Positions 15,761 to 64,000 of a stretch of DNA of 64,000 bases are shown piece after piece; position 1 is the first letter of the stretch, and the number at the start of each line of letters is the position of its first letter. The notes below the pieces were generated by a model. The model saw nothing but the letters and a program-made list of their open reading frames with translations. It did not search any database and was not told where the DNA came from. The position numbers and the translations under genes are program-made. The stretch is from Dielma fastidiosa (lineage in GTDB: Bacteria > Bacillota_I > Bacilli_A > Erysipelotrichales > Erysipelotrichaceae): NCBI RefSeq assembly GCF_000313565.1, contig NZ_HE578924.1:189595-253594 (forward strand), given 5' to 3'.

Positions 15761-16600
15761 TCAGTACTTCAGACCTTCTAATTTCTTCTTTTTTTCTTCA
15801 TCCGTCGATACCAAATAGATCCTCGTTGTTTCCAGAGACTCATGCCCCAGCAAATCAGCAAGCTCTGCAAGTCCATTGCTGTTTTCTTTTAAAAACTGCT
15901 TGGCAAACAAATGTCGGAAACTGTGCGGGTGAATCTTGCTTTTTTTTATCTTAAGCTCACTGGCCAGCCTTTGTAGTCGCCGCCAGATGGTTGATGCCGC
16001 CATTTGCTTACCCTTGACTTTGCCGGGGAAGATTGTACCTGTTCTGATGTTGCTGTTCCGGCAGTATTTCCTCAGCTCACGCGCCAAGTCCTGACGGATG
16101 GGCACAGTGCGGATTTTTCCTTTGTTGTCAATCTGGAGATAATTGCTTTTCAAATTTTCAACTGTAAAGTATTTCAACTCGCCAACGCGAATGCCGGTGT
16201 TTGCCAGCACTTTCATAATGAGATAAGTATCAAATTGATCTCTCGACTTTGCTTTCCTTAACAGGCGGTTGTATTCTTCCGGCGTAAGCACATCGGACAA
16301 GCTGCTCTTGCGCTGCACCTTCAGCTGCTTAACACGCAGCTCCGGCGCACCGATCCACTTTAGATACTTATTCATAACAACAATATACAAGCTGATCGTT
16401 GCCGGCCTGTATCCACTACCAAGCAGCATTTCCTTATATGCCAATGTGTGTGACTTAGTAATCTCAAAGTCCTCAGGCAGCATATCAACAAACCGGCGCA
16501 CACCATGCTCGTATTTCTTAAGCGTGTTTACTGATTTCTCACTGCACTTCTGGTCAAGTAAAAACTCGGCAATGGCATTTTCAAAATCTTTCTTTTTCAT
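15761..16600 (-). CDS. Tyrosine recombinase (XerC/D-like), internal to prophage
   Basis: 279 residues from ATG at 16,600 behind GGTAGG. The N-terminal core-binding domain is followed by a complete catalytic set: Arg138 in TGIRVGEL, His226-Arg229 in HSFRH, His253 in LLGHES, and Tyr262 in TTRIYL. It lacks an arm-binding domain, unlike the integrase at 26,372. Its position directly after an HsdS-like gene recalls recombinases that shuffle specificity genes, but no inverted repeats were identified. It could also resolve phage dimers. Confidence 0.9.
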   Translation of the reverse strand: MKKKDFENAIAEFLLDQKCSEKSVNTLKKYEHGVRRFVDMLPEDFEITKSHTLAYKEMLLGSGYRPATISLYIVVMNKYLKWIGAPELRVKQLKVQRKSSLSDVLTPEEYNRLLRKAKSRDQFDTYLIMKVLANTGIRVGELKYFTVENLKSNYLQIDNKGKIRTVPIRQDLARELRKYCRNSNIRTGTIFPGKVKGKQMAASTIWRRLQRLASELKIKKSKIHPHSFRHLFAKQFLKENSNGLAELADLLGHESLETTRIYLVSTDEEKKKKLEGLKY

Positions 16601-16629
16601 ATTCACCTACCTTTTGGTCCTCAACTTCT

Positions 16630-17052
16630 TTAAACCACCATATTCTCTAACATGAATCTCTTTAAATTTTTAATTTCTTCTACTGCACGTTTTTCATTTT
16701 CAATAGCAAGTTCATTTTGCTGTAAACATTTGGCTATCTTATATTGATCGTCAATATCATGGATGCTTAGTTTCATGTGATAAAGTGTGTCAACCTGAAT
16801 ATTTATACCACTCTGATATTTTGCTAAAAATTCAGGTAATTCTTTTTCGATTGAATAATATAGGTATTTGGGAGCAAATTCTATTTTCGGTATGATTACA
16901 GCATATTTGGTGTCAACATATTCATCTTCGTCCAAATACATTATTTGCCCTTTGGTTGCGCTGAAGCTAAGATAAAATTTATCCTCACCGTGCAAATGGA
17001 TTACATCACGGATGACATTAAGACGATCAAATAGGATTAACTCATTATCCAT
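16630..17052 (-). CDS. HsdS-like target-recognition-domain protein
   Basis: 140 residues. The order of elements matches half of a type I restriction specificity subunit: YAVIIPKIEFAPKYLYYSIE, then INIQVDTLYHMKLSI, then QYKIAKCLQQNELAIENEKR and a closing IKNLKRFMLENMV helix. Full HsdS has two such repeats (about 400 residues); no HsdM or HsdR is nearby. The ATG lies inside the end of the E2-like gene (8-base overlap), tying it to the conjugation operon. Role unknown. Confidence 0.65.
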   Translation of the reverse strand: MDNELILFDRLNVIRDVIHLHGEDKFYLSFSATKGQIMYLDEDEYVDTKYAVIIPKIEFAPKYLYYSIEKELPEFLAKYQSGINIQVDTLYHMKLSIHDIDDQYKIAKCLQQNELAIENEKRAVEEIKNLKRFMLENMVV

Positions 17053-17680
17053 TTACGATATCTTTCAGAGTCTTGTTATCAGTGATTAATAAGTGATACG
17101 GAAATTCGTTTGCTGACAGGTAAGCAAAATAATCAACAGTGTTTTTAAATGACTTTATATCATTGACCGTGTTGTGTGTATACTGTGTAAAAATTATATT
17201 TTCTAAAGCTTTTATATAGTCACAGTCACTGATTTTTCGCGGTGCTGATCCAATGCAAATCATATTGTTTCCAAGCATGTTAGGCATTGGGTATCTATAC
17301 AATTTTGTATTTGTCCCATCAAACTGTTTATAGGCAAATGCTTTGATACTATCAACAGTGCCGGCATTTTGATACATGATATATAAAGCGTTGGGAAAAT
17401 GTATTTTATAAGCTTTATCCTTATATGTTACTATGCGAATATGCTCTGGCTGGTTTATCAGAATACTACCGAAATCGTCTGATGCGCCAATAATGCTTGA
17501 GTGTAGTAAATATGGTTTAGCATGGTTGTTTGCATATGGATTAGTTGTATAATCATTTATCTTTTTTACTATCTCCTTTAATGGAGCGCTCAAAAAATAT
17601 TCTTGATTACTTATTTTGTTTACCTCAAGTATTTCCGCTTCCTCGTTAATGTCTGATATTCTAATTATCATCTCTTTCAA
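17045..17680 (-). CDS. E2-like protein, PRTRC system protein B family
   Basis: 211 residues. The conserved E2-like part is LYRYPMPNMLGNN, then Cys142 in MICIGSAPRK, then IIFTQYTHN, mirroring the PRTRC-B pattern of a PxxN loop, GxxClG and FTH. Cys142 would be the thioester residue. The best start is TTG at 17,680, 7 bases after GGAGG; ATG at 17,671 is the alternative. It overlaps the upstream gene by 4 and the HsdS-like gene by 8 bases. Confidence 0.75.
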   Translation of the reverse strand: MKEMIIRISDINEEAEILEVNKISNQEYFLSAPLKEIVKKINDYTTNPYANNHAKPYLLHSSIIGASDDFGSILINQPEHIRIVTYKDKAYKIHFPNALYIMYQNAGTVDSIKAFAYKQFDGTNTKLYRYPMPNMLGNNMICIGSAPRKISDCDYIKALENIIFTQYTHNTVNDIKSFKNTVDYFAYLSANEFPYHLLITDNKTLKDIVNG

Positions 17681-18528
17681 AATAGCACCTCCACGTCGCT
17701 TTTTTTAATACTCATAATCGTGTCCACTAGGCTATATCTACTTCCTATATCACCAAATGCCGAAAATATAGTGTTGTATTCGGAATAGTTGTTTATTGGG
17801 TCATTGGTGATGCTCTTAATCAAATCTAGCATTTGTGCCATGTCTTCTTTATCAAGGTCAACGAGTGTGTTTCCTTCGCCGCTCATGTAGTCCAAGTAGC
17901 ATACGACAAAGTCATCGTCAGTGACCTGTATAGCCTTAAATAAATCCATTGCCTGCACAAATTCGTTGTAATGCTCACCACCATCAGATTCCGGATATTT
18001 CATATGCACATAATACAGTTCAGCATCGCTTTGATTATCTGCCAACCTGTCAATTTCTTCTCTTGCTTGCTTTTTGCTCAATCTGGGGTTGGTGATAATG
18101 TCAAGCACCTCTCGATATTCGCCGCCAATCTCGCTTTCAAGCCATTCAGCAGCGTTTAATAGAGATTTATCCTCACTAAGATTAAAGTAGACATCTGCCA
18201 AAAAATAAATTGGATTACAATACTCATTTACAATTCCAGGCTCTTTTACTATGCACTTGAGTATCAGTGCCAGAATCGGGCACATGTCATAATCGATATC
18301 TAAATACTGCTCTAAATGGTACGCAAATGCCAAATCTTCAAAGATATATCCCATATCATCCACATCAAGATCATTATCAATTGCCGCTTGCCTTAAATTA
18401 TCAATTAATGATTTTGCAAACTCTTGATCTAAGCAGCGTTCAAATAAAAATTTTAAGATTTGTCCGCCTTCACCGAGTTTGATATTTTTAGAAATGTATT
18501 TCCTCAAATTGCTTAACAACAGTGACAC
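17677..18528 (-). CDS. Uncharacterised protein of the conjugation cassette
   Basis: 283 residues, acidic (many D/E), alpha-helical, no signal peptide. It starts at GTG 18,528, inside the end of the E1-like gene (41-base overlap). The middle segment LAFAYHLEQYLDIDYDMCPI and a repeat-like DIITNPRLSKKQAREEIDRL suggest a helical scaffold. No JAB (EXnHxHx10D) motif is seen. It lies between E1 and E2 genes, so it probably works with them. Confidence 0.55.
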   Translation of the reverse strand: MSLLLSNLRKYISKNIKLGEGGQILKFLFERCLDQEFAKSLIDNLRQAAIDNDLDVDDMGYIFEDLAFAYHLEQYLDIDYDMCPILALILKCIVKEPGIVNEYCNPIYFLADVYFNLSEDKSLLNAAEWLESEIGGEYREVLDIITNPRLSKKQAREEIDRLADNQSDAELYYVHMKYPESDGGEHYNEFVQAMDLFKAIQVTDDDFVVCYLDYMSGEGNTLVDLDKEDMAQMLDLIKSITNDPINNYSEYNTIFSAFGDIGSRYSLVDTIMSIKKSDVEVLF

Positions 18529-19166
18529 CTTCTTTCAGCTCATTCGCCATGATGCAGCTGCAATGTTCTAATAAAGAAGTGGCCATCTTTAAATTTGTCA
18601 CTAGATACTGAATATTGCCGGCAGCAAGTTCTTGACAGCTCTTTTCTGCTGGATGATCTTTATTCTCCAGTGTATAGGTTTCACTTCTTATCGCACCGTA
18701 GGTAACTTGATTAACATTCAATGCCGCGTAGACATTGCCGTCATACTCTGAATTAGCACTGTCTATGTAAACTGCATTTTTTAAATGCCTGAAGGTTTGC
18801 TCTAACAAAATGCGAGTGGCATCATTATCAACGCAGCCTATAAGTATCGGATAAAATTCTTTGCGCTGATCGATAAACTCAATCAGTTCATTTCTAGTCA
18901 CATACTTATCAATCGCCTCGCACAATTCGCCATGAAATGTATTGATTTTCTTAGCAAGAGCTATCGCCTTGTTTTCGCCAATGTCTTGTGGTTGAAATGC
19001 TTGGCGTTTCATATTTTTTTTGCTCAACTTGATCTCCGTCAACGATTACCATTTTACTTGATGTGTTTAAAAGCAACTTCGGTAAATCTCTTGCCAGTAA
19101 GGAGCCGGTACCGCCGGTTCCTATAATGACAAAGAGTTTTTTATACTTTATGTTTTCTATTTTCAT
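18488..19166 (-). pseudogene. E1-like ThiF family protein (PRTRC type), frame broken at an A8 tract
   Basis: Two frames together make a 225-residue ThiF/E1 enzyme. The first (from 19,166) has the Rossmann loop IGTGGTGSLLARDLP and VIVDGDQVEQK; the second continues NMKRQAFQPQDIGENKA, the expected RQxF/DxGxxKA motif. They are joined only if the run of eight A at 19,014-19,021 is read as seven. As sequenced, the first frame ends after 71 residues. E1 proteins adenylate the C-terminus of a ubiquitin-like protein. Phase variation, RNA polymerase slippage, mutation and sequencing error are all possible. Confidence 0.75.
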
Positions 19167-19169
19167 AGT

Positions 19170-19508
19170 TTAACCTTTTTTATGCTGCTGAAAGGTTGGA
19201 ACAAGTACGTTATCAGCTTCGATTAAGTCATAAGACACTTTTCCAGAAAACTCATAAAACTGATGGTTAAGCATAGCACTGGTAATCTCATCAGCGGTAT
19301 ATTCCTTGCCCTCCTCAAAGATATGGCTAACGTCAATGTTCTGAGCGGCATAATACAGTGTAAATGGGTATTTATACTTTTTCACTTCTACCGGTTGTGG
19401 TTCTTTCTTCGCTTCCGGTTTTTTACTTGTTTCTTTCTTTGGTTTTTCTTTCTTTGGTTCTACTACCTCAAATTCTTCCTCATCTAACATTTCAAATAAA
19501 TCATCCAT
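19170..19508 (-). CDS. Possible ubiquitin-like protein (PRTRC-C-like) with charged N-terminal tail
   Basis: 112 residues. The first 42 are a Lys/Glu/Pro linker (EPKKEKPKKETSKKPEAKKE). The remaining 70 are predicted beta-rich: YKYPFTLYYAAQN, EGKEYTADEITSAML, then KVSYDLIEADNVLVP, ending QQHKKG with a terminal glycine, as expected of a protein activated by an E1. It lies 3 bases upstream of the ThiF-like gene. The beta-grasp fold is inference from size, ending and neighbourhood. Confidence 0.5.
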   Translation of the reverse strand: MDDLFEMLDEEEFEVVEPKKEKPKKETSKKPEAKKEPQPVEVKKYKYPFTLYYAAQNIDVSHIFEEGKEYTADEITSAMLNHQFYEFSGKVSYDLIEADNVLVPTFQQHKKG

Positions 19509-19509
19509 C

Positions 19510-20508
19510 TTATTTTTCCTCCTTAGTTTCTGATTTTTTTACAGGCATCATATACCTTGCAAGCACATACCGATTATTGCGCATACCCTCATCGCAGATT
19601 AACATTCGGGCGCCAAAAATCACCGATACATCGTCTTCTTTCATCAATGAAGTAATCTTTATTAATCTAGCAACATCATAAGATAGGTCAGCGGCTTCAC
19701 CCTCTATTTCTGCATTGACCTGTATTGCCAGTTCGTTACTTTGTTCGCCGGCATACAATTTGATACCTTTACTATTAGTGCTGATGGTTACATATTTTGA
19801 ATATTCTTTTATCAGTTTCAATGCTTGAATCATCTCATCACGAGGCAACTTAGCTTTTAACAGCGGTTCATCATCCATTTTGACGTCTGGCAGCTTTTGT
19901 TCTATCAACACTGTATAAAAGCTGCGGCCGGCAGTTTTTGATACAAGCATCTTACCGTTTGTCTGAAGCCTCATCGTTTCGGTATCAAGTATATGTTTAA
20001 ATGCTTCTCCTGGCACATTGATTGGATTATCAAGACCGGTATCAGTGGTGTGAGTGTAAAACATAGTCCTATCAGAAGCTACAATCTTATCAGAGAATAT
20101 GTTAACCCCTGATAGCTGTGGATACGTTGAGTCACTTCCAATAAATTGAGTACCTGGAAGCAAATCATCTAATTTGACTTGAATATCTACCATGTCATTA
20201 AGCGTTGGCGTGTAGACAGGATAATCAATCACATTGGCAAATTTTGCCTTGAGTCTAGTATTAGATACCTTGATCACGTTGTCCGTGAATTCCAGCGTGA
20301 AGTCACTGAGTTTTGATATAAACCCAAAATCTTTTGCGCTTAAAGTAAAAGATGCCGGTTCATCAGCTTCTTTACTCATCTTTGCGGCTCGAAGGATGCC
20401 CATGCCGGCACCGTCGAATGAGTGAAATTTGATTTTATCCTTATCCACTGTGATGGTGTTATATGGCATCGGATCATGAAATACCGATGAGTTCAATTTG
20501 ATTTTCAT
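19510..20508 (-). CDS. DNA polymerase sliding-clamp-like protein
   Basis: 332 residues with a clamp-like three-part repeat of alternating strands: FTLSAKDFGFISKLSDFTLE; FIGSDSTYPQLSGVNIFSDK then IVASDRTMFYTHTT; and MIQALKLIKEYSKYVTISTN. The middle part resembles the beta-clamp signature of SGVN followed by ATDRxRL. It probably serves as the phage processivity factor. It lies 1 base from the replication protein gene and directly before the Ub-like cassette, an association worth noting. Confidence 0.7.
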   Translation of the reverse strand: MKIKLNSSVFHDPMPYNTITVDKDKIKFHSFDGAGMGILRAAKMSKEADEPASFTLSAKDFGFISKLSDFTLEFTDNVIKVSNTRLKAKFANVIDYPVYTPTLNDMVDIQVKLDDLLPGTQFIGSDSTYPQLSGVNIFSDKIVASDRTMFYTHTTDTGLDNPINVPGEAFKHILDTETMRLQTNGKMLVSKTAGRSFYTVLIEQKLPDVKMDDEPLLKAKLPRDEMIQALKLIKEYSKYVTISTNSKGIKLYAGEQSNELAIQVNAEIEGEAADLSYDVARLIKITSLMKEDDVSVIFGARMLICDEGMRNNRYVLARYMMPVKKSETKEEK

Positions 20509-20509
20509 T

Positions 20510-21463
20510 TTATTTTCCTTTCTTACTTATGTGTTCTTCTTTCCACATTTCGGCTAGCTCAGCTTTTAATTGCTCCACTTGTTCAGGAGTCAATTCTTCG
20601 TCGTCTGAGCTTTCAATTTCTTGCTGCTGCTCTTTATACCAATCCGGTATAGGTACAGCTGTTTTCTGATATACGGTTCCTTTCTGTCTCTTTTTCATGT
20701 GCTGCTTAGCACTTTCGGCATCCTTAATACCTGCTGCCTGCCAGTCTGCCAATACTTTGTTAATGTATTTAAATGACTTTGCTTTTTTGCTGATGGCTGT
20801 TTCAAGTGCCAGTAATACAACCTCATCATTAAATGTGTTCAGCCAATCATGTAAAGTTTGTAATTCGAGCTGTGACAATGGATTTCCAAATGATATTTCA
20901 AATGTCTCAAAAATATTTTTTAATCGCTCATTTGATTTCTTTACTTTACTTTTATTTACTTTACTTTCCTTTAGACTCTTAACATGATCATTCGCAAGGT
21001 CAACATGTTCATTCGCAAGCTCATAATTGTCAAAAAGTGCGACTTTAAAACAACCTTTGCATTCTTCATCTTGCAAAAGCCAATATTCCATATATACAGT
21101 TTTGTCACGACGCTCTGAAGCAACTGCCCAATAGCGCCGTTGGATACCTTTACTGGTTAGCACTCCCCACCTATCAAACAGCCCTTTATCAAAAAGACCA
21201 ATTTGTAAGCAGTAGTCCACAGTCTCTTTGACTGTACCGGAACCAATGCCGCCGCCCATCTTACGTGCCGTAGATGCACAATCGTCATAGCCCCATTTAT
21301 AAAAGTATCCTTCAGACCCATACGCCTTTTGACATAAATAAAAGTAAATTCCGAATCCATTCCAGCCTTGTGCATCAAGCAGCTTATCCATCTTGGTGTC
21401 ATTGTCAAACAGATCCACAGACCAGCCAGCGTAATCTAGCTTTTTCTTAGGTTTGCCAGCCAT
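20510..21463 (-). CDS. DnaD-like phage replication initiation protein
   Basis: 317 residues. The N-terminal Lin1244/Lin1753-type domain has YAGWSVDLFDNDTKMDKLLD and LCQKAYGSEGYFYKWGYDD; a Lys-rich linker with SKVNKSKVKKS repeats precedes a DnaD-type C-terminal domain (FGNPLSQLELQTLHDWLNTF then AFKYIN-like FKYINKVLADWQAAG). It loads the replicative helicase at the phage origin. It heads the replication module. Confidence 0.85.
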   Translation of the reverse strand: MAGKPKKKLDYAGWSVDLFDNDTKMDKLLDAQGWNGFGIYFYLCQKAYGSEGYFYKWGYDDCASTARKMGGGIGSGTVKETVDYCLQIGLFDKGLFDRWGVLTSKGIQRRYWAVASERRDKTVYMEYWLLQDEECKGCFKVALFDNYELANEHVDLANDHVKSLKESKVNKSKVKKSNERLKNIFETFEISFGNPLSQLELQTLHDWLNTFNDEVVLLALETAISKKAKSFKYINKVLADWQAAGIKDAESAKQHMKKRQKGTVYQKTAVPIPDWYKEQQQEIESSDDEELTPEQVEQLKAELAEMWKEEHISKKGK

Positions 21464-21471
21464 AAGCTACC

Positions 21472-21813
21472 TCAGATACCACCTTCAGTTTCCTCGATCA
21501 GCAACTGTAAATTAATGTTTTCTCCTCTTGCCCTCATCCCTCGGCAATACTTAATCAACTGATTGATACCTCTTTTTTTGTAATCGTTTAAGGATCGTTC
21601 AATTTCTTTCGGATCAGACGTCAATTTATATCCTTTAACATTATCATGAGCGATGAAATCATCATGCAAATGGTTAAAGTATCCCTCGTTGTATTGCTCA
21701 ACCAAGAGCCTGAACTCCCTGCCATCTTTGCTGATATGCTTATCGTATCTTTCATAAACTTCTTTAATCTCTTTCATCTTTTTCCAATCTGAAAGATTGA
21801 TAATATCAATCAT
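21472..21813 (-). CDS. Hypothetical early prophage protein
   Basis: 113 residues starting MIDIINLSDWKKMKEIKEVY. It is charged and helical, with a RRLL-less RSLNDYKKRGINQLIKYCRG segment. No family is recognised. It lies 8 bases upstream of the replication protein gene and is presumably co-transcribed with it. Confidence 0.6.
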   Translation of the reverse strand: MIDIINLSDWKKMKEIKEVYERYDKHISKDGREFRLLVEQYNEGYFNHLHDDFIAHDNVKGYKLTSDPKEIERSLNDYKKRGINQLIKYCRGMRARGENINLQLLIEETEGGI

Positions 21814-26371: not shown

Positions 26372-27586
26372 ATGATCGAGAAAGTAAAAGTAAAAGTAAA
26401 AACCGGTAAACTTGACAAGGAAGGCAAGCCACTTTATAAAGAAGTCGAAAAATACAGATTCAGATACTACTACACAACCATCACGGGACAAAGACGGCAA
26501 AAGAATAGCAAACGTTATGATACTATCAAATTGGCTAAAAAAGCTGAAGAAGATTTTATTGCCAACCATTTAAACCAAACAACAGCAAGTGGAGTAAAAT
26601 TTTCTACTTTATTAACTATGTACAAAAATGATATGATCAATAACAATGAAGAGACAACCTTAGTAACCAAGATGAGTAAAATAAAGGGACACATAGAACC
26701 TTATTTCAAAGATTTAATGATTGAAAATATTACACCGTTAACTATTAGACAATGGCAAGATACGATGTATTCTAAAGAATATGTTAAAGAAACCATTAAG
26801 CAGAAAGGCAAACCAGATATTAAAGTCATGGCAAAATTCAAAAAGAGTTATCTAATGGAATTACACACTTTGTTAACTACTATACTTGAATATGGTGTTA
26901 CTTATTACGGTTTACTGAAAAATCCAGCTAAAGTACAAGGTAATTTCAAGAGAAAAAAAATTGAAGTTTCAGCAGATAAAGATGAAGAAAATTATTTCAC
27001 AATCGAAGAGTTTAATTTATTTATTAAATTTGTACCAGAAGCATATTCTGACTTCTTTAACTTCATGTATTATACAGGTTGCCGTCCTGGTGAAGTGTTC
27101 GCCCTTACATGGGACAAATACAACGGAAAGTCTATAAATATAAATCAATCTCTAAGCCGTAAAGCATTAAAAGGCGGATACATACTAAAAAGCCCTAAAA
27201 ATGAAGCTTCAATCCGAGTAATTGATTTATCTAAAAATATAATAGAAATTCTCAATAAGAGAAAATTGAAAGAAGAGAAAAAATACGGCTTCAATGACAA
27301 CTGGTTTATTTTTGGATCATATAAACCTCTCTCAGAAACCACTATACGAAGAGTTGCGGATAAAGCTATGTTAGCAGCCAACTTAAAACACATAACACTT
27401 CATGGCTTTCGACATTCTCACGCATCTTTGCTTATCAATGGAAATATGAATATTAAATTAATCTCATCAAGATTAGGACATTCTAGTGTTACTGAAACTC
27501 TTGACACTTATACGCATATGTTTCCAGAACAACGTGAAATTTGTGTTAATTACCTTAATGCTATATTTAATAAATTAGGCCAGTAA
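26372..27586 (+). CDS. int: Phage integrase, tyrosine recombinase
   Basis: 404 residues. The N-terminal arm-binding domain (about 1-65) is of the Tn916 Int/AP2-like type, then a SAM-like core-binding domain (about 75-180), then the catalytic domain with Arg238 (CRPGEV), His344-Arg347 (HGFRH), His370 (RLGH) and Tyr380 (LDTYTH). GGAGG precedes the ATG. It lies 100 bases from the tmRNA 3' end, its attachment target, so it is the enzyme responsible for integration. Confidence 0.96.
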   Translation: MIEKVKVKVKTGKLDKEGKPLYKEVEKYRFRYYYTTITGQRRQKNSKRYDTIKLAKKAEEDFIANHLNQTTASGVKFSTLLTMYKNDMINNNEETTLVTKMSKIKGHIEPYFKDLMIENITPLTIRQWQDTMYSKEYVKETIKQKGKPDIKVMAKFKKSYLMELHTLLTTILEYGVTYYGLLKNPAKVQGNFKRKKIEVSADKDEENYFTIEEFNLFIKFVPEAYSDFFNFMYYTGCRPGEVFALTWDKYNGKSININQSLSRKALKGGYILKSPKNEASIRVIDLSKNIIEILNKRKLKEEKKYGFNDNWFIFGSYKPLSETTIRRVADKAMLAANLKHITLHGFRHSHASLLINGNMNIKLISSRLGHSSVTETLDTYTHMFPEQREICVNYLNAIFNKLGQ

Positions 27587-27689: not shown

Positions 27690-28069
27690 TGGTGGAGCTG
27701 GCGGGAGTCGAACCCGCGTCCAAAAATAGTTCCTCGTACAGACGTCTACAGTTTATTTCATACTAGTTACTCAGCAAGTAGCGATGAACAAACTCTTCCT
27801 GAGGCGTTTGATGGAATTTTCATGATGCACTTCTCAAACAAAGGTACACCCCTATCCTTTATCTCTTACACCCAAACCAAGCCTAAAGGCAAAACCTGAT
27901 TGGACGGCTGCAAACCAGTTGTTAGGTTAATTAAGCAGCAAAAGCAACTTGACGGTTTCCACCGAATAAGTTTGCTAAGAAATTTTTTCCAGTTATTTTT
28001 TAAGCCTTTACGTAGCGACACGACTGCAGTCTGCACCAAACATATCCCTGTCGAAACCATGACAGCCCC
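27690..28069 (-). ncRNA. ssrA: Transfer-messenger RNA (tmRNA)
   Basis: 380 bases. The 5' end GGGGCTGTCATGGTTTCGAC and the 3' end with GGGTTCGACTCCCGCC and encoded CCA form the tRNA-like domain. The tag frame (27,931-27,975) starts GCA AAC and encodes ANLFGGNRQVAFAA followed by TAA. tmRNA rescues stalled ribosomes with SmpB, encoded just upstream. Its 3' end is the prophage attachment site. Confidence 0.97.
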
Positions 28070-53525: not shown

Positions 53526-56500
53526 CTATTCTGCACATTTTCTGCGCAATACATTTAACAGCATAATGCCTAAAGCTGACAGCGCCAGAACTGGAATCCA
53601 AAAATACAAACTGTCTTTTGTATTTGGAACCTCAACACCTGCCCCCAGCGGTACTTCTTCATCTTCTATTTCAACAAAAGCATTGGCGCCGCCGTCAGAT
53701 AGAGGTACATCCTCATCAATAATATCGACGATTTCTTCACCAGGGCCTAGAGGTACATCCCCCTCAGGAATATCCATCGTTGGTTTATCTGGATCAGGCC
53801 GTGAAGGTCTGCCTGGATCAACAGGGTCTGTTGGATCAGTTGGATCAACCGGTGCCTTCTTCTTTTCGTTGATGATCGTTTTAGTAATCACTGTTTCATC
53901 ACCGCTAAGTGTTACATTATAATGAATGCTTGAATCATAATCATATCCGTCAGCTCCCTGTGTCTCAACAAGGTAATAACTGCCGGCTGATAAATTGCTG
54001 ACTGTAAATGTACCATCCGCCTCTGTTACATAACTGCCTACTAATTGATTGTCAGCAGCTGTATATAAATCGAATTTTACAGTTGGCAGTACAACATCAT
54101 CACTGCCCTTTTTAATAACCTTTAGGTCATACAGCTGTTCTTCAACATCTTCTTTATAATTTTTGATTGCATTGCCATTGTTGATTTCAATAATTTTACC
54201 GCCATCCTCAGGCAAACCTAAGGATAACTCAAATGGGAAATAATTGCTTGTATCTTCTAATGGCTTATAATCATCTAAAGGCTTAATTTCTTTTAAGTAG
54301 AAGCTGCCGGCTGGAAGATTGCGAATCTGAAGCAACCCCTTTGCATCAGTAAGCAGTTTTGCACTACCTTTTTGGTCATAGATATATGCACCTTCAGATT
54401 TTGTGAAGCCGGTTAATTCACTGCCAGTCGTTTGATCATATAATGCAAATTCAACTTTTTCTAAAGCTTTGTTAGTATCACCGTCAACTTTTGTTAGTGT
54501 AATTGCACGGGCAACATTTTCCGCAAGCTTATAAGTTATTTGATTTTTATCAACCGTGAAAGGAATCATTGTATTTTGACCAGTATAATATCCATTTGGA
54601 TTACTTACTTCTTTGAAATAGTAATTACCCATTGATGGTAATGAACTGATAGCAATAGCTCCGTTAGCATCGGTAACCAAAGTCTCTGTAAATTTCGCAT
54701 CACCTGTATGGTTTCCAGCGATATAAACATAGTGTCCATCAGAAGCACGCATTAACTGCAGTGGTGTATCAGATCCAACTTCATAAACTTCAAACTTGAC
54801 ATCCGCCATACCCTTAACTGCCGTATTACCTAAATTCTCTTCTTTATATCCGTACTTACTGTCTGCTTTAACTAAAACAACATCGCCATTGATATAATTA
54901 CCTTTGATACCGGCTGTGAAGTTATGCTTTGCGATAATACTGCTTTCATATTCCACAGTTCCCGTCTTAACCATAACATTATTTGTTACGGTAGCCTGTG
55001 ATAAATTTGTGACTTCAGTACGATATTTAATAATAAATCCATATACTGGCGCATCTGCATTTTTATTTGTATCATTCTGAATCCCTTCAGGGATATAAAA
55101 CTTTATCGTTTTTTCATAAATATCAAGACTATCCTGCCATTTTTGAATATAAGCAGCTTTGTTATTGTTGTATACAGTGATATCTTTACGATAATTATTC
55201 AAAGACGCTAATACATTAGCTGATGCATCAGGTACTATATCTTGAATGTTGGCGGCTAAGACCGGCACTATTAAGATTGAAGGATCATTGATATAATCCT
55301 CAACCGCTTTCAAAAATGTATCAAGCTCCTCATGATAAGTAAGCAATGAATCTTTTTTTTCATAATTAGTCTTAAGACTAACTAATCTTGTCCGAAGCAA
55401 TGCCAATGGTGAATTTGAATCATTTTTATAATCTTCAATGTTTTTCTCAGCTGTCTTTATCTTATCTTGCAAAGTTTTATAATAGTCAGTCAGTTTCCAA
55501 CCACTATTTATATCATTCATTGTGATAGCCTCACTTGGTTCTGATGATCCAAGCTTACCAAAGTTAATAATCAGCTGTTGAGTATTAGCCGCAGTTGTAA
55601 TAACTGCCCAGCTTCTTGGTGTCTGTTCAACTAATGCTGCTACATCACCATCACTATTCGTAAGATTCTGGAAATTTTCACTATTAATATCTATAATACT
55701 TCTTGCTATGCCAGGCTGATTAGTAGCTTGTGTACCAGATTTGAACACAACCTCTTCATTGCTTGTACCTTGATAACCAACGGCATTTTTAGTTCCGTAA
55801 TAGAAAATCGGTATTTCAATAAAGAAAGGTGCGTTGCCGTAGACGTTAACATATTTCTGATTAGCATCTAACTCATCAACAAGAATCACATTCTCATAAG
55901 TTTGACCTTTAAATGGATCTCCATCTTCATATTGTTTAATTAAATCAAAAAAGCCTGCACGATATTCAATTTGATGGGCATCATTACCGAACCATTTGAC
56001 ATCTTTCTTTAATGAAGGTTTTTCATCTTTATTAAAATTATTTGGTAAGCTTGGCTTCCACGCCGTACCGCTTGGTGTACTTGGCGGAGTTACAACTTCT
56101 GGTTTTTTCTCAACAGTCAGTTGACCGTAATATTTGTCCATAAAAAATAAATCATTCACGGTTGCTTCAGTTACATCTTTAAATGTTGAACTGCCTTTAA
56201 AGAAACCGCTGATATCCTGAAAATATACAATGTTTTCATTGAATTCAATATGAAACTTTAATTCACTATTCTCATACGTTAAATAATAATCACCGACTTC
56301 AATACCAGAGATTCGCAATGCCGTCCTATCAGTTTGATTGCGGTACTTTAATCCAGAAATCGTTGCAATATCTATTGTAAAATAATCATTGGCCTGGATT
56401 GTCTGATCTGCGCTGGCTGGCTGCCATTCAAATTTAAATTCAAAGGTAGAACCACCCTTAACGGTATAATCATTTCCTTCCTGAATTGTCACACCATTCA

Positions 56501-56996
56501 ATGATGCCTTCGCCGATGGTACGTCAATCATATCTGAAATATCATTGCCGCCATTTGAAAGCGCAAAATTGCTTCGCATGTAATATTGCATTCCTAACAA
56601 GCCATAAATCTGAGCACCTTCTACATCTTCCCATACGATATCTGTATCAGGTGTAATTATTTCTTCTGTGTTTGCCTCAGCATCACTGCCGGTTGCCGGA
56701 TCAATGACATCAGTATCAGTAGCAGCTGGTTCTTTCTCCTCAGTGTCACTGCCAGTTGCTGAATCATCGATGATTTCATCTTCAAAATCTTTATTACTCT
56801 CTTCCTCATCTTCCGATTCAACATTAAAATCCGGGTCTAACTCTTCTTCTGAATCATTAACATTTATTACTTCTTCTTCATTTTCTGTATTCATTGATTC
56901 AGTTTCCGCTTTTACATAACCCTGTATAGATGAGAAGGCCATGAGAAATGACATCATAACTGCTAAAATTCTTTTTGTTATTCTGTTCTGCTTCAT
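53526..56996 (-). CDS. SpaA/Cna-B repeat wall-anchored protein
   Basis: 1156 residues. Signal peptide 1-30, a long acidic stretch (35-120) with ATGSD repeats, a central adhesin-like part, then Cna-B/SpaA domains (VKGMADVKFEVYEVG, ITLTKVDGDTNKALEKVEFA, LKVIKKGSDDVVLPTVKFDL) likely locked by Lys-Asn bonds. A Pro/Asp-rich stalk holds the DEDVPLS/DEEVPLG repeats. C-terminus: VPNTKD, a membrane helix, and RRKCAE. VPNTK replaces LPxTG, matching the class B sortase upstream. Extended -10-like TATAAT at 57,045-57,050. Confidence 0.88.
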   Translation of the reverse strand: MKQNRITKRILAVMMSFLMAFSSIQGYVKAETESMNTENEEEVINVNDSEEELDPDFNVESEDEEESNKDFEDEIIDDSATGSDTEEKEPAATDTDVIDPATGSDAEANTEEIITPDTDIVWEDVEGAQIYGLLGMQYYMRSNFALSNGGNDISDMIDVPSAKASLNGVTIQEGNDYTVKGGSTFEFKFEWQPASADQTIQANDYFTIDIATISGLKYRNQTDRTALRISGIEVGDYYLTYENSELKFHIEFNENIVYFQDISGFFKGSSTFKDVTEATVNDLFFMDKYYGQLTVEKKPEVVTPPSTPSGTAWKPSLPNNFNKDEKPSLKKDVKWFGNDAHQIEYRAGFFDLIKQYEDGDPFKGQTYENVILVDELDANQKYVNVYGNAPFFIEIPIFYYGTKNAVGYQGTSNEEVVFKSGTQATNQPGIARSIIDINSENFQNLTNSDGDVAALVEQTPRSWAVITTAANTQQLIINFGKLGSSEPSEAITMNDINSGWKLTDYYKTLQDKIKTAEKNIEDYKNDSNSPLALLRTRLVSLKTNYEKKDSLLTYHEELDTFLKAVEDYINDPSILIVPVLAANIQDIVPDASANVLASLNNYRKDITVYNNNKAAYIQKWQDSLDIYEKTIKFYIPEGIQNDTNKNADAPVYGFIIKYRTEVTNLSQATVTNNVMVKTGTVEYESSIIAKHNFTAGIKGNYINGDVVLVKADSKYGYKEENLGNTAVKGMADVKFEVYEVGSDTPLQLMRASDGHYVYIAGNHTGDAKFTETLVTDANGAIAISSLPSMGNYYFKEVSNPNGYYTGQNTMIPFTVDKNQITYKLAENVARAITLTKVDGDTNKALEKVEFALYDQTTGSELTGFTKSEGAYIYDQKGSAKLLTDAKGLLQIRNLPAGSFYLKEIKPLDDYKPLEDTSNYFPFELSLGLPEDGGKIIEINNGNAIKNYKEDVEEQLYDLKVIKKGSDDVVLPTVKFDLYTAADNQLVGSYVTEADGTFTVSNLSAGSYYLVETQGADGYDYDSSIHYNVTLSGDETVITKTIINEKKKAPVDPTDPTDPVDPGRPSRPDPDKPTMDIPEGDVPLGPGEEIVDIIDEDVPLSDGGANAFVEIEDEEVPLGAGVEVPNTKDSLYFWIPVLALSALGIMLLNVLRRKCAE

Positions 56997-57252
56997 GATA
57001 TACCTCCTTTTTTTATATTTATTGTTTCTTTTGATTACATCTATATTATACTAAATTTTTATTCCCATGTTTTTCCTATAAATACCGTTTAAAAGCCGTT
57101 ATTTGCAGCTTTTTGAGTATTTTCCGCTTTATCGGTAAAACGCTGATTTAAGCTTCAAACCCTTCCATTTTCAGCATTAAAATAAGCATAAATGGTTGAT
57201 TATAGCTCACAATCAAGCAATCTTCAAATCATTTGCTCATCCCTTAACAAAT

Positions 57253-57287
57253 AAAAAGACATGCCGAATTCAGCAGGCATGCCTTAA
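57253..57287 (-). terminator. Terminator after sortase gene
   Basis: AGGCATGCC...GGCATGTCT (one wobble pair) followed by TTTTATTT on the minus strand. Confidence 0.8.
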
Positions 57288-58033
57288 TTATTGTTTGATT
57301 TTACTTCAATAAGCCTTGCGCAGACAATAAATCGTTTTGAATCATTAAAGTCTGTACATGTTGAGAGTGTTAAAATCTGATCCTCACTATCCAGTTCTGC
57401 TTCAACATTTAACTGTGTGCATAATGCTTGAGTAAATTCAGTAAACGCATCATCATTAATAAATTCAAATTTATATATATCTGATGTTACCTTTATCTCT
57501 CCAGCGCCAAATATTTCATAAACAAGCGTTTGATTCTCCTGATGAATAGTTATAAAAGGATGTTCTTTTAAATAAGCATCATCATTATATTTTTTTAATG
57601 AGCCAAACATCGTGCCATTAAGTGCATTATGTCCATAAAGCACCGTGTGACGATCACTGAAATCTGAACTATTACGCATATCCAGAAAAATCGAACCATA
57701 TTCGTTTTCCGTTTTATCAATTAAGTGACTCAAATAATAAGCATTATCTATACCAGCAGCAAACGGATAATCTACTTTTGTTTCGTCAATTTTGATCCAT
57801 CCTAAAACATCTTCATTCCTTACCTTCAGATCCTTCAATACTTTTTTATATGGAATTTCTTCGACAGGTGATACTTGATCATGAATCTGTTCATTATTCT
57901 GGATATTTCTGATTTCATTATAATAAGCCTCAGAATCATTGCTTTTCTGACTCATTACCATAATTTTATAAGCACTGAAAATAAACAATCCTGCCAGCAG
58001 TAATTCCAACATTATTAATATTTTCTTTTTCAT
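57284..58033 (-). CDS. srtB: Class B sortase
   Basis: 249 residues. N-terminal membrane anchor (5-27), then the sortase barrel with His135 in VLYGHNALNGTMFGSL, Cys226 in LTLSTCTDF and Arg234 in SKRFIVCARL. The helix between strands 6 and 7 (FINDDAFTEFTQALCTQL) is class B-like. It would anchor the adjacent VPNTKD protein to the wall. Confidence 0.95.
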   Translation of the reverse strand: MKKKILIMLELLLAGLFIFSAYKIMVMSQKSNDSEAYYNEIRNIQNNEQIHDQVSPVEEIPYKKVLKDLKVRNEDVLGWIKIDETKVDYPFAAGIDNAYYLSHLIDKTENEYGSIFLDMRNSSDFSDRHTVLYGHNALNGTMFGSLKKYNDDAYLKEHPFITIHQENQTLVYEIFGAGEIKVTSDIYKFEFINDDAFTEFTQALCTQLNVEAELDSEDQILTLSTCTDFNDSKRFIVCARLIEVKSNNN

Positions 58034-63229: not shown

Positions 63230-64000
63230 TTATCTGAATAATGCTAATATGGCGGTTAGCTGACATTCTTTGATACTCGCTTTTCCTATCTTCTTACCAA
63301 TCGCTGCCCACTTCTCTGTTTGTGTTTGCTTTTCTTTTACGAATACTCGATATTCTCTCAAGATCTTCTCTTTATATCCGATCCCTTTTCTTGCGATCAC
63401 ATAACTCGCTGCCTGATGCACACTCATTCCCTTATCCCGTACATACTTCAATTTACCTATCAGTGACGTATACGCTGGTTCGACTTTGATCACTTCAACT
63501 CCTTCATAAGCTGCTTTTCGCTCGATGGCTTCACTGATCTGTGAATAAGCAAACTCACTCAGCATTCGATTCAGTCCTTTTGGCTGATAACGCTGTTTCC
63601 TCTTTTTATCACTAAAGTCCAAGGCTTCCATCACTAATGGTTTATGGGTACGCACACATTCATAAATGATCTTACTCGCTGTTTCCGCAATCTCATGCTT
63701 TCGCTGATTCCTTGTCTTTCCCTTTAGCTTCATCGGCAGGATCTGCTGTCTGCACAGATTGCCTTGCCGATCGATGTGGGCAACCGCGATATGATCCACA
63801 TTGATATCGATACCGATACTGCCTGCTTCCTTTTTGGTCACTATCATTTTGGGTTCCACCTCAATGATCGCTTTAATGATGAAATACTCACCATGGTCAT
63901 AGAGTTCATAAGCTACGGCTTTACCGACGGTATTATGCGGTAATCTGACTGCTCTTTCTAATTTCTCTGCATGATGATAAAACCGGATCGGTAAATGAAC
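63230..64000 (-). CDS. IS200/IS605 TnpB-related protein, 5' truncated by window edge
   Basis: 256 codons are open to the right edge; a GTG at 63,859 is only internal, since the frame continues upstream (VHLPIRFYHHAEKLERAVRL). The RuvC-type Asp is in GSIGIDINVDHIAVA and Glu in PLVMEALDFS. The third-acid region reads GMSVHQAASYVIARKG and the CxxC zinc ribbon is missing, as in the TnpB-related family. These are RNA-guided nuclease relatives or their derivatives. No tnpA is visible. Confidence 0.85.
   Translation of the reverse strand, partial: VHLPIRFYHHAEKLERAVRLPHNTVGKAVAYELYDHGEYFIIKAIIEVEPKMIVTKKEAGSIGIDINVDHIAVAHIDRQGNLCRQQILPMKLKGKTRNQRKHEIAETASKIIYECVRTHKPLVMEALDFSDKKRKQRYQPKGLNRMLSEFAYSQISEAIERKAAYEGVEVIKVEPAYTSLIGKLKYVRDKGMSVHQAASYVIARKGIGYKEKILREYRVFVKEKQTQTEKWAAIGKKIGKASIKECQLTAILALFR

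What the first reader, a model, noticed from the sequence alone, without database searches (positions are those of the whole stretch)
15761..20508. Prophage-borne ubiquitin-like conjugation cassette linked to a sliding clamp, an HsdS-like protein and a recombinase
Seven overlapping or nearly abutting genes encode a clamp-like protein, a small protein ending in glycine, an E1/ThiF-like protein, a 283-residue unknown, an E2/PRTRC-B-like protein with Cys in MICIGS, a single HsdS-type recognition domain and a tyrosine recombinase. E1 and E2 motifs are visible; PRTRC systems are known from plasmids. A link to a phage clamp and to an HsdS half is, as far as I know, not described. It could modify phage or host proteins in replication or defence evasion. 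No JAB protease is seen.
Basis: partly seen in the sequence, partly recalled or inferred. Interest (0 to 1): 0.9.

Follow-up and report, generated by a model that had tools for sequence, protein, structure and literature searches.

The report
Phage ubiquitin-like tagging beside DNA clamp
A virus resident in a gut bacterium carries, in one unbroken run of genes with its DNA sliding clamp, the genes of a predicted ubiquitin-like protein-tagging pathway, and at least eleven related viruses keep the same run, so these viruses likely tag a replication protein much as our own cells tag their clamp; in this particular copy one of the enzyme genes is split.

Summary
Real, with corrections. On the minus strand a DnaD-type initiator and a sliding clamp run straight into a small protein ending in Lys-Gly (Ubl), an E1 (ThiF), a 283-aa unknown (X) and an E2-like protein. 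E1 and E2 are related to the plasmid PRTRC cassette (profile-profile 99.5% and 98.3%); the Ubl models as beta-grasp, its best rows being Get5 UBL, ubiquitin and SUMO; the clamp matches bacterial beta clamps. Ubl-E1-X-E2 keeps its order in 24 of 24 compared rows. A clamp lies directly upstream in 12, probably 13; the other 11 have an unknown 213-279-aa protein plus RusA instead. Clamps also lie near E1 in a gut phage and on several PRTRC plasmids. No Prok-JAB was found in the host genome. Corrections: the window's E1 is split over two frames (an intact 225-aa relative is on record for Dielma fastidiosa); the HsdS half is peculiar to this prophage; a recombinase follows in only 5 of 24. Best reading: a JAB-less, PRTRC-related phage conjugation cassette that likely tags a replisome protein, the clamp leading. 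Conjugation and target are untested. New variant of a known kind; no report of the clamp link turned up in open-access searches.

The parts
20510..21463 (-). DnaD/Lin1244-type replication initiator or helicase loader directly upstream (replication module context)
   Evidence: phrog_2562 1.2e-59, DnaB_2 1.4e-19, Lin1244_N 1.6e-18
19510..20508 (-). phage DNA sliding clamp, 332 aa
   Evidence: phrog_947 2e-18; family profile hits PDB DNA polymerase III beta subunits 1.1e-10 over 18-297 of 324 positions
19170..19508 (-). ubiquitin-like protein (Ubl), 112 aa: short N-terminal motif, Lys/Glu-rich linker, beta-grasp core, C-terminal Lys-Gly
19485..19502 (-). N-terminal motif D-L-F-E-M-L of the Ubl, of a type found in 23 of 24 rows; resembles part of the beta-clamp-binding consensus QL(S/D)LF but lacks the Gln (proposed docking motif, untested)
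   Evidence: consensus from PMC11139829 (passages)
19188..19373 (-). predicted beta-grasp core, residues 46-107
19173..19178 (-). C-terminal Lys-Gly, invariant, directly before the stop
   Evidence: 19 of 19, 24 of 24
18951..19166 (-). E1 (ThiF-like), N-terminal part in the first frame: GTGGTGS adenylation loop
   Evidence: residues 1-50 identical to the intact 225-aa protein P0025
18488..19042 (-). E1, C-terminal part in the second frame, with the conserved Ser-Cys
   Evidence: 93% identical to residues 46-225 of P0025; PRTRC_ThiF 4.3e-14
17677..18528 (-). X: 283-aa fast-evolving, mostly helical protein of unknown function between E1 and E2; its conserved C-terminal Glu-Val codons coincide with the likely ribosome-binding site of the E2 gene
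17045..17680 (-). E2-like protein (Prok-E2_D / PRTRC_B related), 211 aa
   Evidence: PF14460 27.5 bits; PRTRC_B 6.1e-7; hhalign 98.3%, 1.4e-14
17255..17257 (-). codon of invariant Cys142, the presumed thioester Cys
   Evidence: 24 of 24 protein rows; aligned with the Cys of PRTRC_B
17174..17176 (-). codon of invariant His169, C-terminal to the Cys
   Evidence: 24 of 24 protein rows; aligned with the PRTRC_B His
16630..17052 (-). single HsdS-type DNA-recognition domain, 140 aa; same direction, overlapping the E2 stop, but not part of the conserved cassette
   Evidence: Methylase_S 3.6e-8; only PF01420 hit in the host genome; absent from other prophages' loci
15761..16606 (-). tyrosine recombinase, 281 aa; not part of the conserved core, but weakly similar recombinases follow the cassette in 4 other rows
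   Evidence: Phage_integrase 1.4e-27; L061, L062, L071, L077

Best explanation
This is a phage gene cassette for a predicted ubiquitin-like conjugation pathway (Ubl, E1, E2 and a helper X), built into the phage replication module next to the sliding clamp, and it likely attaches the Ubl through its C-terminal glycine to a replication protein, the clamp itself being the most likely target. Proposed steps: (1) E1 would adenylate the free C-terminal Lys-Gly of the Ubl with ATP (inferred from the ThiF fold and motifs); no processing protease is needed because the gene ends at the glycine (shown by sequence). (2) The Ubl would pass to Cys142 of the E2-like protein, with His169 assisting (inferred from invariance and alignment with PRTRC_B). 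(3) The E2, perhaps with X as a substrate adaptor, would form an isopeptide bond with a lysine of a replisome protein; the Ubl's own N-terminal motif, which resembles part of a clamp-binding motif, would hold it at the clamp (inferred, weakest step). (4) With no JAB protease, the tag would be long-lived and act as a switch between functions of the clamp, such as early and late replication or recombination. In the genome of the window the E1 gene is split into two frames, so this copy is probably weak or dead, while intact copies exist in relatives.
For: Ubl-E1-X-E2 in the same order and strand in 24 of 24 compared rows; the 24 E1s form one group against 6 plasmid and gut E1s, support 99/97. 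C-terminal Lys-Gly in 24 of 24 Ubls. E1 and E2 homologous to PRTRC ThiF and B (99.5%, 4.3e-23; 98.3%, 1.4e-14), with Cys and His aligned. Beta-grasp model of the Ubl. Clamp directly upstream in 12 of 24 rows clearly and probably in a 13th (L081), overlapping or within 2 nt. In 315 genomes of the order the clamp family (E <= 1e-12) occurs in 6, and these 6 are among the 11 with the cassette, at the adjacent position. Independent E1-clamp neighbourhood in a gut phage record, L030, where the clamp gene overlaps the E1 gene. Clamp near PRTRC genes on a Vibrio plasmid (0.5 kb), Pseudomonas plasmids (about 4 kb), an Aeromonas plasmid and a cyanobacterial plasmid. N-terminal motif in 23 of 24 Ubls, shuffled mean 0.07.
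Confidence: 0.5

Rival explanations
1. Host-directed tagging: the cassette conjugates the Ubl to host proteins (host replisome, defence nucleases) to favour phage replication or blunt defence, and the clamp is only a neighbour in the replication module.
For: 11 rows lack the clamp but keep Ubl-E1-X-E2; the place is in the early replication/recombination module, beside RusA, RecT and a helicase-loader family and SSB (by reading the ORFs).
Against: No clamp of this family was found away from the cassette in 315 genomes (profile biased to cassette clamps), and clamps recur near E1 genes in unrelated elements, which argues for more than shared transcription.
Confidence: 0.2
2. Sulfur carrier: the small protein is a ThiS/MoaD-like thiocarboxylate carrier for a nucleic-acid or cofactor sulfur modification, not a protein tag.
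For: E1 is of ThiF type; genes annotated as PAPS-reductase family lie downstream of ThiF in 5 of 21 PRTRC-type plasmid loci (L032, L035, L087, L088, L092).
Against: An E2-like protein with Cys and His is present in 24 of 24 rows; carriers are not known to need an E2 (recalled). No PAPS-reductase family was hit among the window and phage-locus proteins that I scanned with Pfam (not every gene was scanned).
Confidence: 0.12
3. Prophage-borne defence system against other phages, like Bil or type II CBASS.
For: Weak PADLOC E1-E2 matches (8.6e-5 and 0.011); known bacterial Ubl systems are antiviral (PMC10097602, listing and start of abstract; PMC11354881, passages).
Against: Separate E1 and E2 genes, no Prok-JAB, no CD-NTase among the ten scanned neighbours, and a place in the replication module rather than in a cargo spot.
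Confidence: 0.1
4. In this genome the cassette is decaying: the split E1 makes it non-functional, and the HsdS half is a leftover of gene flux. (Not exclusive with the best explanation for the intact relatives.)
For: E1 in two frames in the window and in the near-identical L001; an intact 225-aa relative is 93% identical over its last 180 residues; HsdS is a single recognition domain and the only PF01420 hit in the genome.
Against: The other frames (clamp, Ubl, X, E2) are open; runs of A can be read by slippage or be mis-sequenced, and the two assemblies may come from one strain.
Confidence: 0.45

Closest known systems
PRTRC cassette of plasmids (NCBIfam TIGR03736/TIGR03737; row 6d of Iyer et al. 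2006, PMC1779556, passages)
   Same: Homologous E1 (ThiF) and E2 (B) with conserved Cys and a His after it; a small protein ending in Gly (of 12 PRTRC C proteins taken here, some only by position, 9 end in KG, RG or NG, 1 in WG, 2 not in Gly); a fast-evolving extra protein; location on mobile elements.
   Different: No Prok-JAB; no ParB among the ten scanned genes; order Ubl-E1-X-E2 instead of ParB-E-C-F-B-(A)-ThiF; Ubl and X not recognisable as C and F; E1 and E2 far below the curated PRTRC cut-offs; sits in a phage replication module with a clamp.
Bil (BilABCD) antiviral conjugation
   Same: Separate Ubl, E1, E2 genes and presumed C-terminal Gly conjugation.
   Different: Bil has a two-domain ISG15-like Ubl, a JAB (BilC) and a two-lobed E1 (PMC11354881, passages); here one beta-grasp core, no Prok-JAB, E1 of about 220 aa in the intact relatives, phage replication context.
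Type II CBASS Cap2/Cap3
   Same: E1/E2 chemistry encoded by bacteria and their elements.
   Different: Cap2 is an E2-E1 fusion, target a CD-NTase, with JAB Cap3 (recalled; PMC10097602 seen as listing and start of abstract); none of these seen here.
Eukaryotic PCNA ubiquitination/SUMOylation
   Same: Would be the functional counterpart if the clamp is the target.
   Different: No homology claimed beyond folds; target not shown here.

Membership tests
PRTRC system | PRTRC-type ThiF/E1 | tested here: inconclusive
   Homologous (TIGR03736 4.3e-14, 52 bits, cut-off 144.75; hhalign 99.5%) but below the curated cut-off; scored on one of two pieces.
PRTRC system | PRTRC protein B (E2-like) | tested here: inconclusive
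   TIGR03737 29 bits, cut-off 131.45; PF14460 above its cut-off; hhalign 98.3%.
PRTRC system | PRTRC protein C (small protein) | tested here: inconclusive
   No HMM or profile match; shared C-terminal Gly only.
PRTRC system | JAB protein A | tested here: not met
   PF14464: 0 matches in the whole host genome, control rings in 8 of 14 genomes; other JAB families were not searched. Some PRTRC loci also show no A in the stretch fetched (L024, L031, L035).
PRTRC system | adjacent ParB-family gene | tested here: not met
   None of the ten Pfam-scanned proteins from 15761 to 21813 is ParB.
Bil system | JAB protease and two-domain Ubl | tested here: not met
   No Prok-JAB; one core of about 65 residues in the model.
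Bacterial beta sliding clamp | sequence homology over the length of DnaN | tested here: met
   PDB beta clamps 1.1e-10, profile 18-297 of 324; phrog_947 2e-18. The Pfam DnaN models do not reach E 1 on the window protein.
Bacterial beta sliding clamp | ring formation on DNA | not testable with these tools
   No structure of the clamp was predicted here.
Ubiquitin-like beta-grasp modifier | beta-grasp fold | tested here: met
Ubiquitin-like beta-grasp modifier | free C-terminal Gly | tested here: met
   24 of 24 rows end in Lys-Gly before the stop.
Ubiquitin-like beta-grasp modifier | covalent attachment to lysines | not testable with these tools
   Needs mass spectrometry.
Type I restriction HsdS | two target-recognition domains with HsdM/HsdR partners | tested here: not met
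   One domain of 140 aa; only PF01420 hit in the genome. HsdM and HsdR were not searched.

The most novel reading that the evidence does not exclude
Phages of gut Erysipelotrichales carry their own SUMO/ubiquitin-like system dedicated to the DNA sliding clamp: the Ubl docks on the clamp by a built-in N-terminal clamp-binding motif and is then locked on covalently by its own E1 and E2, a prokaryotic counterpart of PCNA modification, and PRTRC systems of plasmids are the same idea in other replicons.
Probability: 0.25. Interest if true: 0.95.

Novelty: new variant of a known kind. Interest (0 to 1): 0.84.

Why it matters
Gene sets of the PRTRC kind were described twenty years ago (row 6d of PMC1779556), and as far as I recall and could find no target is known. 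A compact phage version without a JAB, joined to a sliding clamp in 12 or 13 of 24 rows and echoed by clamps near E1 genes on unrelated plasmids and a gut phage, gives a concrete, testable target. If true, tagging of the replication clamp by a ubiquitin-like protein, so far a eukaryotic theme, also exists in phages.

Tried and rejected

Mixed results: of 7 further E1s, GxGGTGS was found in 6, DxDxVExxNxxRQ in 6 and the [NH]P..SC pattern in 4; not followed further. X is not recognised by profile in L061, L062, L079, L081; ORFs of 304, 276, 271 and 255 aa fill the place. In L062 an 81-aa ORF lies between Ubl and E1. In L081 the clamp is in two frames, the first piece matching weakly (4e-4) and not at 1e-3 in the larger set.

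Rows: loci that repeat a contig or genome already held were dropped before the count of 24 (for example L001, L009, L063, L084 = the window's twin; L003, L012, L053, L067 = L002; L015, L059, L076 = L005; L064-L066, L069, L070, L073-L075, L078, L080, L082, L083, L054-L057, L060 likewise), as were L016, L017 (near-copies of L023) and L018 (of L019). L058, a C0big-type locus, was not added. Three kept pairs are close by E1 (L008/L019 96%, L023/L072 97%, L021/L022 90%), so 21 rows remain if each pair is merged: 13 of the clamp type, 8 of the C0big type.
Full report
What is there. The window (G000:C2:189595-253594, a 3.6-Mb genome in 95 contigs) holds a prophage with terminase, portal, capsid and tail genes on the left (names from reading the ORFs) and an integrase at 26372-27586 next to a tmRNA gene at 27690-28069. 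Between them the minus strand carries a packed run: DnaD-type initiator, clamp, Ubl, E1 in two frames, X, E2-like, HsdS half, tyrosine recombinase. Gaps are 1, 1 and 3 nt, then (after the two E1 frames) overlaps of 41, 4 and 8 nt, then a 23-nt gap.

Identity of the parts. The clamp matches PHROG 947 (2e-18), and a profile of eight such clamps finds DNA polymerase III beta subunits in the PDB at 1.1e-10. The E1 C-terminal piece matches ThiF (8.2e-10) and PRTRC_ThiF (4.3e-14); the E2-like protein matches Prok-E2_D above its cut-off and PRTRC_B at 6.1e-7. Profile-profile comparison puts E1 with PRTRC ThiF (99.5%, 4.3e-23) and E2 with PRTRC_B (98.3%, 1.4e-14), while Ubl against PRTRC_C and X against PRTRC_F give nothing. 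In an E2 alignment of 24 proteins Cys142 and His169 are invariant and align with the PRTRC_B Cys and His; the same Cys and a following His are found in the 23 other locus rows. Iyer et al. describe the conserved His after the Cys and a 'rapidly diverging alpha-helical protein' for their row 6d (PMC1779556, passages).

The E1 of this copy. The two frames meet at a run of A. The first 50 residues are identical to, and the last 180 are 93% identical to, an intact 225-aa protein whose source names Dielma fastidiosa. The contig L001 differs from the window by one base over 12.6 kb, not in E1, and shows the same split; it may be the same strain. The window copy is therefore probably impaired unless the run is read by slippage.

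How general it is. Searches with the E2 and E1 alignments in viral contigs and species genomes gave loci that reduce to 24 compared rows, 21 if three pairs with E1s 90% or more alike are merged. The 24 have Ubl-E1-X-E2 in this order and strand; in four of them X is recognised by place and size only. Their E1s form one group against six plasmid and gut relatives (99/97), with a warning about long branches. Within the order, 11 of 315 genomes have the E2; in a sample of the class, 5 of 395 have an E1 at E <= 1e-30. Three of these five lie further off: L102 has a Ubl ending in Thr-Lys-Gly, E1, two ORFs and E2; two genomes read with code 4 (L100, L101) have E1, two ORFs, E2, then a small protein ending in Lys-Lys-Gly, then a gene that reads like ParB; L100 also has SSB.

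The clamp link. A clamp lies directly upstream of the Ubl, overlapping or within 2 nt, in 12 of 24 rows, and probably in a 13th, L081, where it is weak and in two frames. The other 11 have a 213-279-aa protein of unknown family (C0big; truncated in L020) and RusA before or after the cassette, and no clamp match; none of the 13 has a C0big or RusA match in the stretch held. On the tree the C0big rows fall on one side of a branch (77/87; 80% of bootstraps), so one switch is enough. In the order, clamps of this family at E <= 1e-12 occur in 6 of 315 genomes, each at the cassette; the six are members of the profile, so this shows only that no further copy lies elsewhere at that threshold. Independent cases: in the gut phage record MT835919 (L030) a JAB-like gene (9.8e-5, below its cut-off), E1 and a beta clamp overlap each other, with an E2 and Rad52 further on. 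On the Vibrio plasmid pSEA1 a clamp lies 0.5 kb after PRTRC ThiF. On Pseudomonas plasmids dnaN lies about 4 kb after it, on an Aeromonas plasmid a clamp lies about 3.5 kb before it, and on a cyanobacterial plasmid dnaN, dnaX and a DNA polymerase I gene follow about 5 kb on. Of 21 PRTRC-type plasmid loci scanned 5 had a clamp; 3 of these were chosen for it, so the fair figure is 2 of 18.

The rest of the run. The HsdS half is found with no other cassette. Recombinases weakly similar to the window's lie 0.2-1.8 kb downstream of E2 in 4 of the other 12 clamp-type rows and in none of the 11 C0big rows.

What it probably does. A Ubl with a ready C-terminal Gly, an E1 and an E2 with conserved Cys and His are the parts of a conjugation pathway. 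The absence of a Prok-JAB in the whole genome fits both a Ubl that needs no processing and a tag that is not removed. The place among initiator, clamp, SSB, RusA and RecT genes (SSB by reading) points to replication or recombination proteins as substrates. The clamp is the best single candidate, with the Ubl's N-terminal motif as a possible docking element. These functional steps are inferred. I put the conjugation itself at about 0.7 and the clamp as main target at about 0.35.

Relation to what is known. It works like, and is related to, PRTRC, but I do not file it as PRTRC: no Prok-JAB, no ParB among the scanned neighbours, Ubl and X not recognisable as C and F, curated cut-offs not reached. 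It differs from Bil and CBASS in the ways listed. In the open library the string PRTRC occurs in 26 papers (listing only). Searches joining ubiquitin-like, phage and sliding clamp gave 1 paper with all terms and 38 with three of four, 15 shown; PRTRC with phage and DNA polymerase III gave 703 with two of three, 8 shown, none of these 8 holding PRTRC. None of the rows shown is about such a link, by title and start of abstract. Subscription papers, including later surveys of E1-like proteins that I recall but did not read, are not covered.

The odds did not need changing.

Noticed in passing
L030 7-2761 and 6445-8004: Gut phage record MT835919: JAB-like gene, E1 and beta clamp overlapping each other, then DUF6094 methyltransferase, Prok-E2_D protein and Rad52: a JAB-bearing cousin with its own clamp.
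   Followed up: partly
L040 6486-8957; L024, L094, L089, L090: Beta-clamp genes within about 0.5-5.5 kb of PRTRC-type ThiF on plasmids of Vibrio, Pseudomonas, Aeromonas and Brasilonema.
   Followed up: partly
L022 3904-4590 and 10 other rows: C0big: unknown 213-279-aa protein with an acidic tail ending around Asp-Pro-Met, found with RusA at each of the 11 rows that lack a clamp; a candidate replacement for the clamp.
   Followed up: partly
L020 4116-4589: Gene that fuses the first residues of SSB to the C-terminal part of C0big, apparently by a deletion.
   Followed up: no
L061 8630-9331, L062 7803-8483, L071 9036-9818, L077 8899-9666: Small tyrosine recombinases 0.2-1.8 kb downstream of the E2 in clamp-type rows, weakly similar to the window's.
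   Followed up: partly
L032, L035, L087, L088, L092: Genes annotated as phosphoadenosine-phosphosulfate-reductase family downstream of PRTRC ThiF in 5 of 21 plasmid loci.
   Followed up: no
L100, L101: In two small genomes read with code 4: AAA ATPase-like gene, E1, two ORFs, E2, a small protein ending Lys-Lys-Gly, ParB-like gene; a possible link between the phage and plasmid forms.
   Followed up: partly
window 16630-17052: Lone HsdS recognition domain whose start overlaps the E2 stop; the only PF01420 match in the genome.
   Followed up: partly
window 53526-58033: Reads like a large Cna-B-type surface protein followed, after a gap, by a sortase-like gene (from reading the ORFs only).
   Followed up: no
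window 63230-63859: Reads like a partial TnpB/RuvC-type transposon protein (from reading the ORF only).
   Followed up: no
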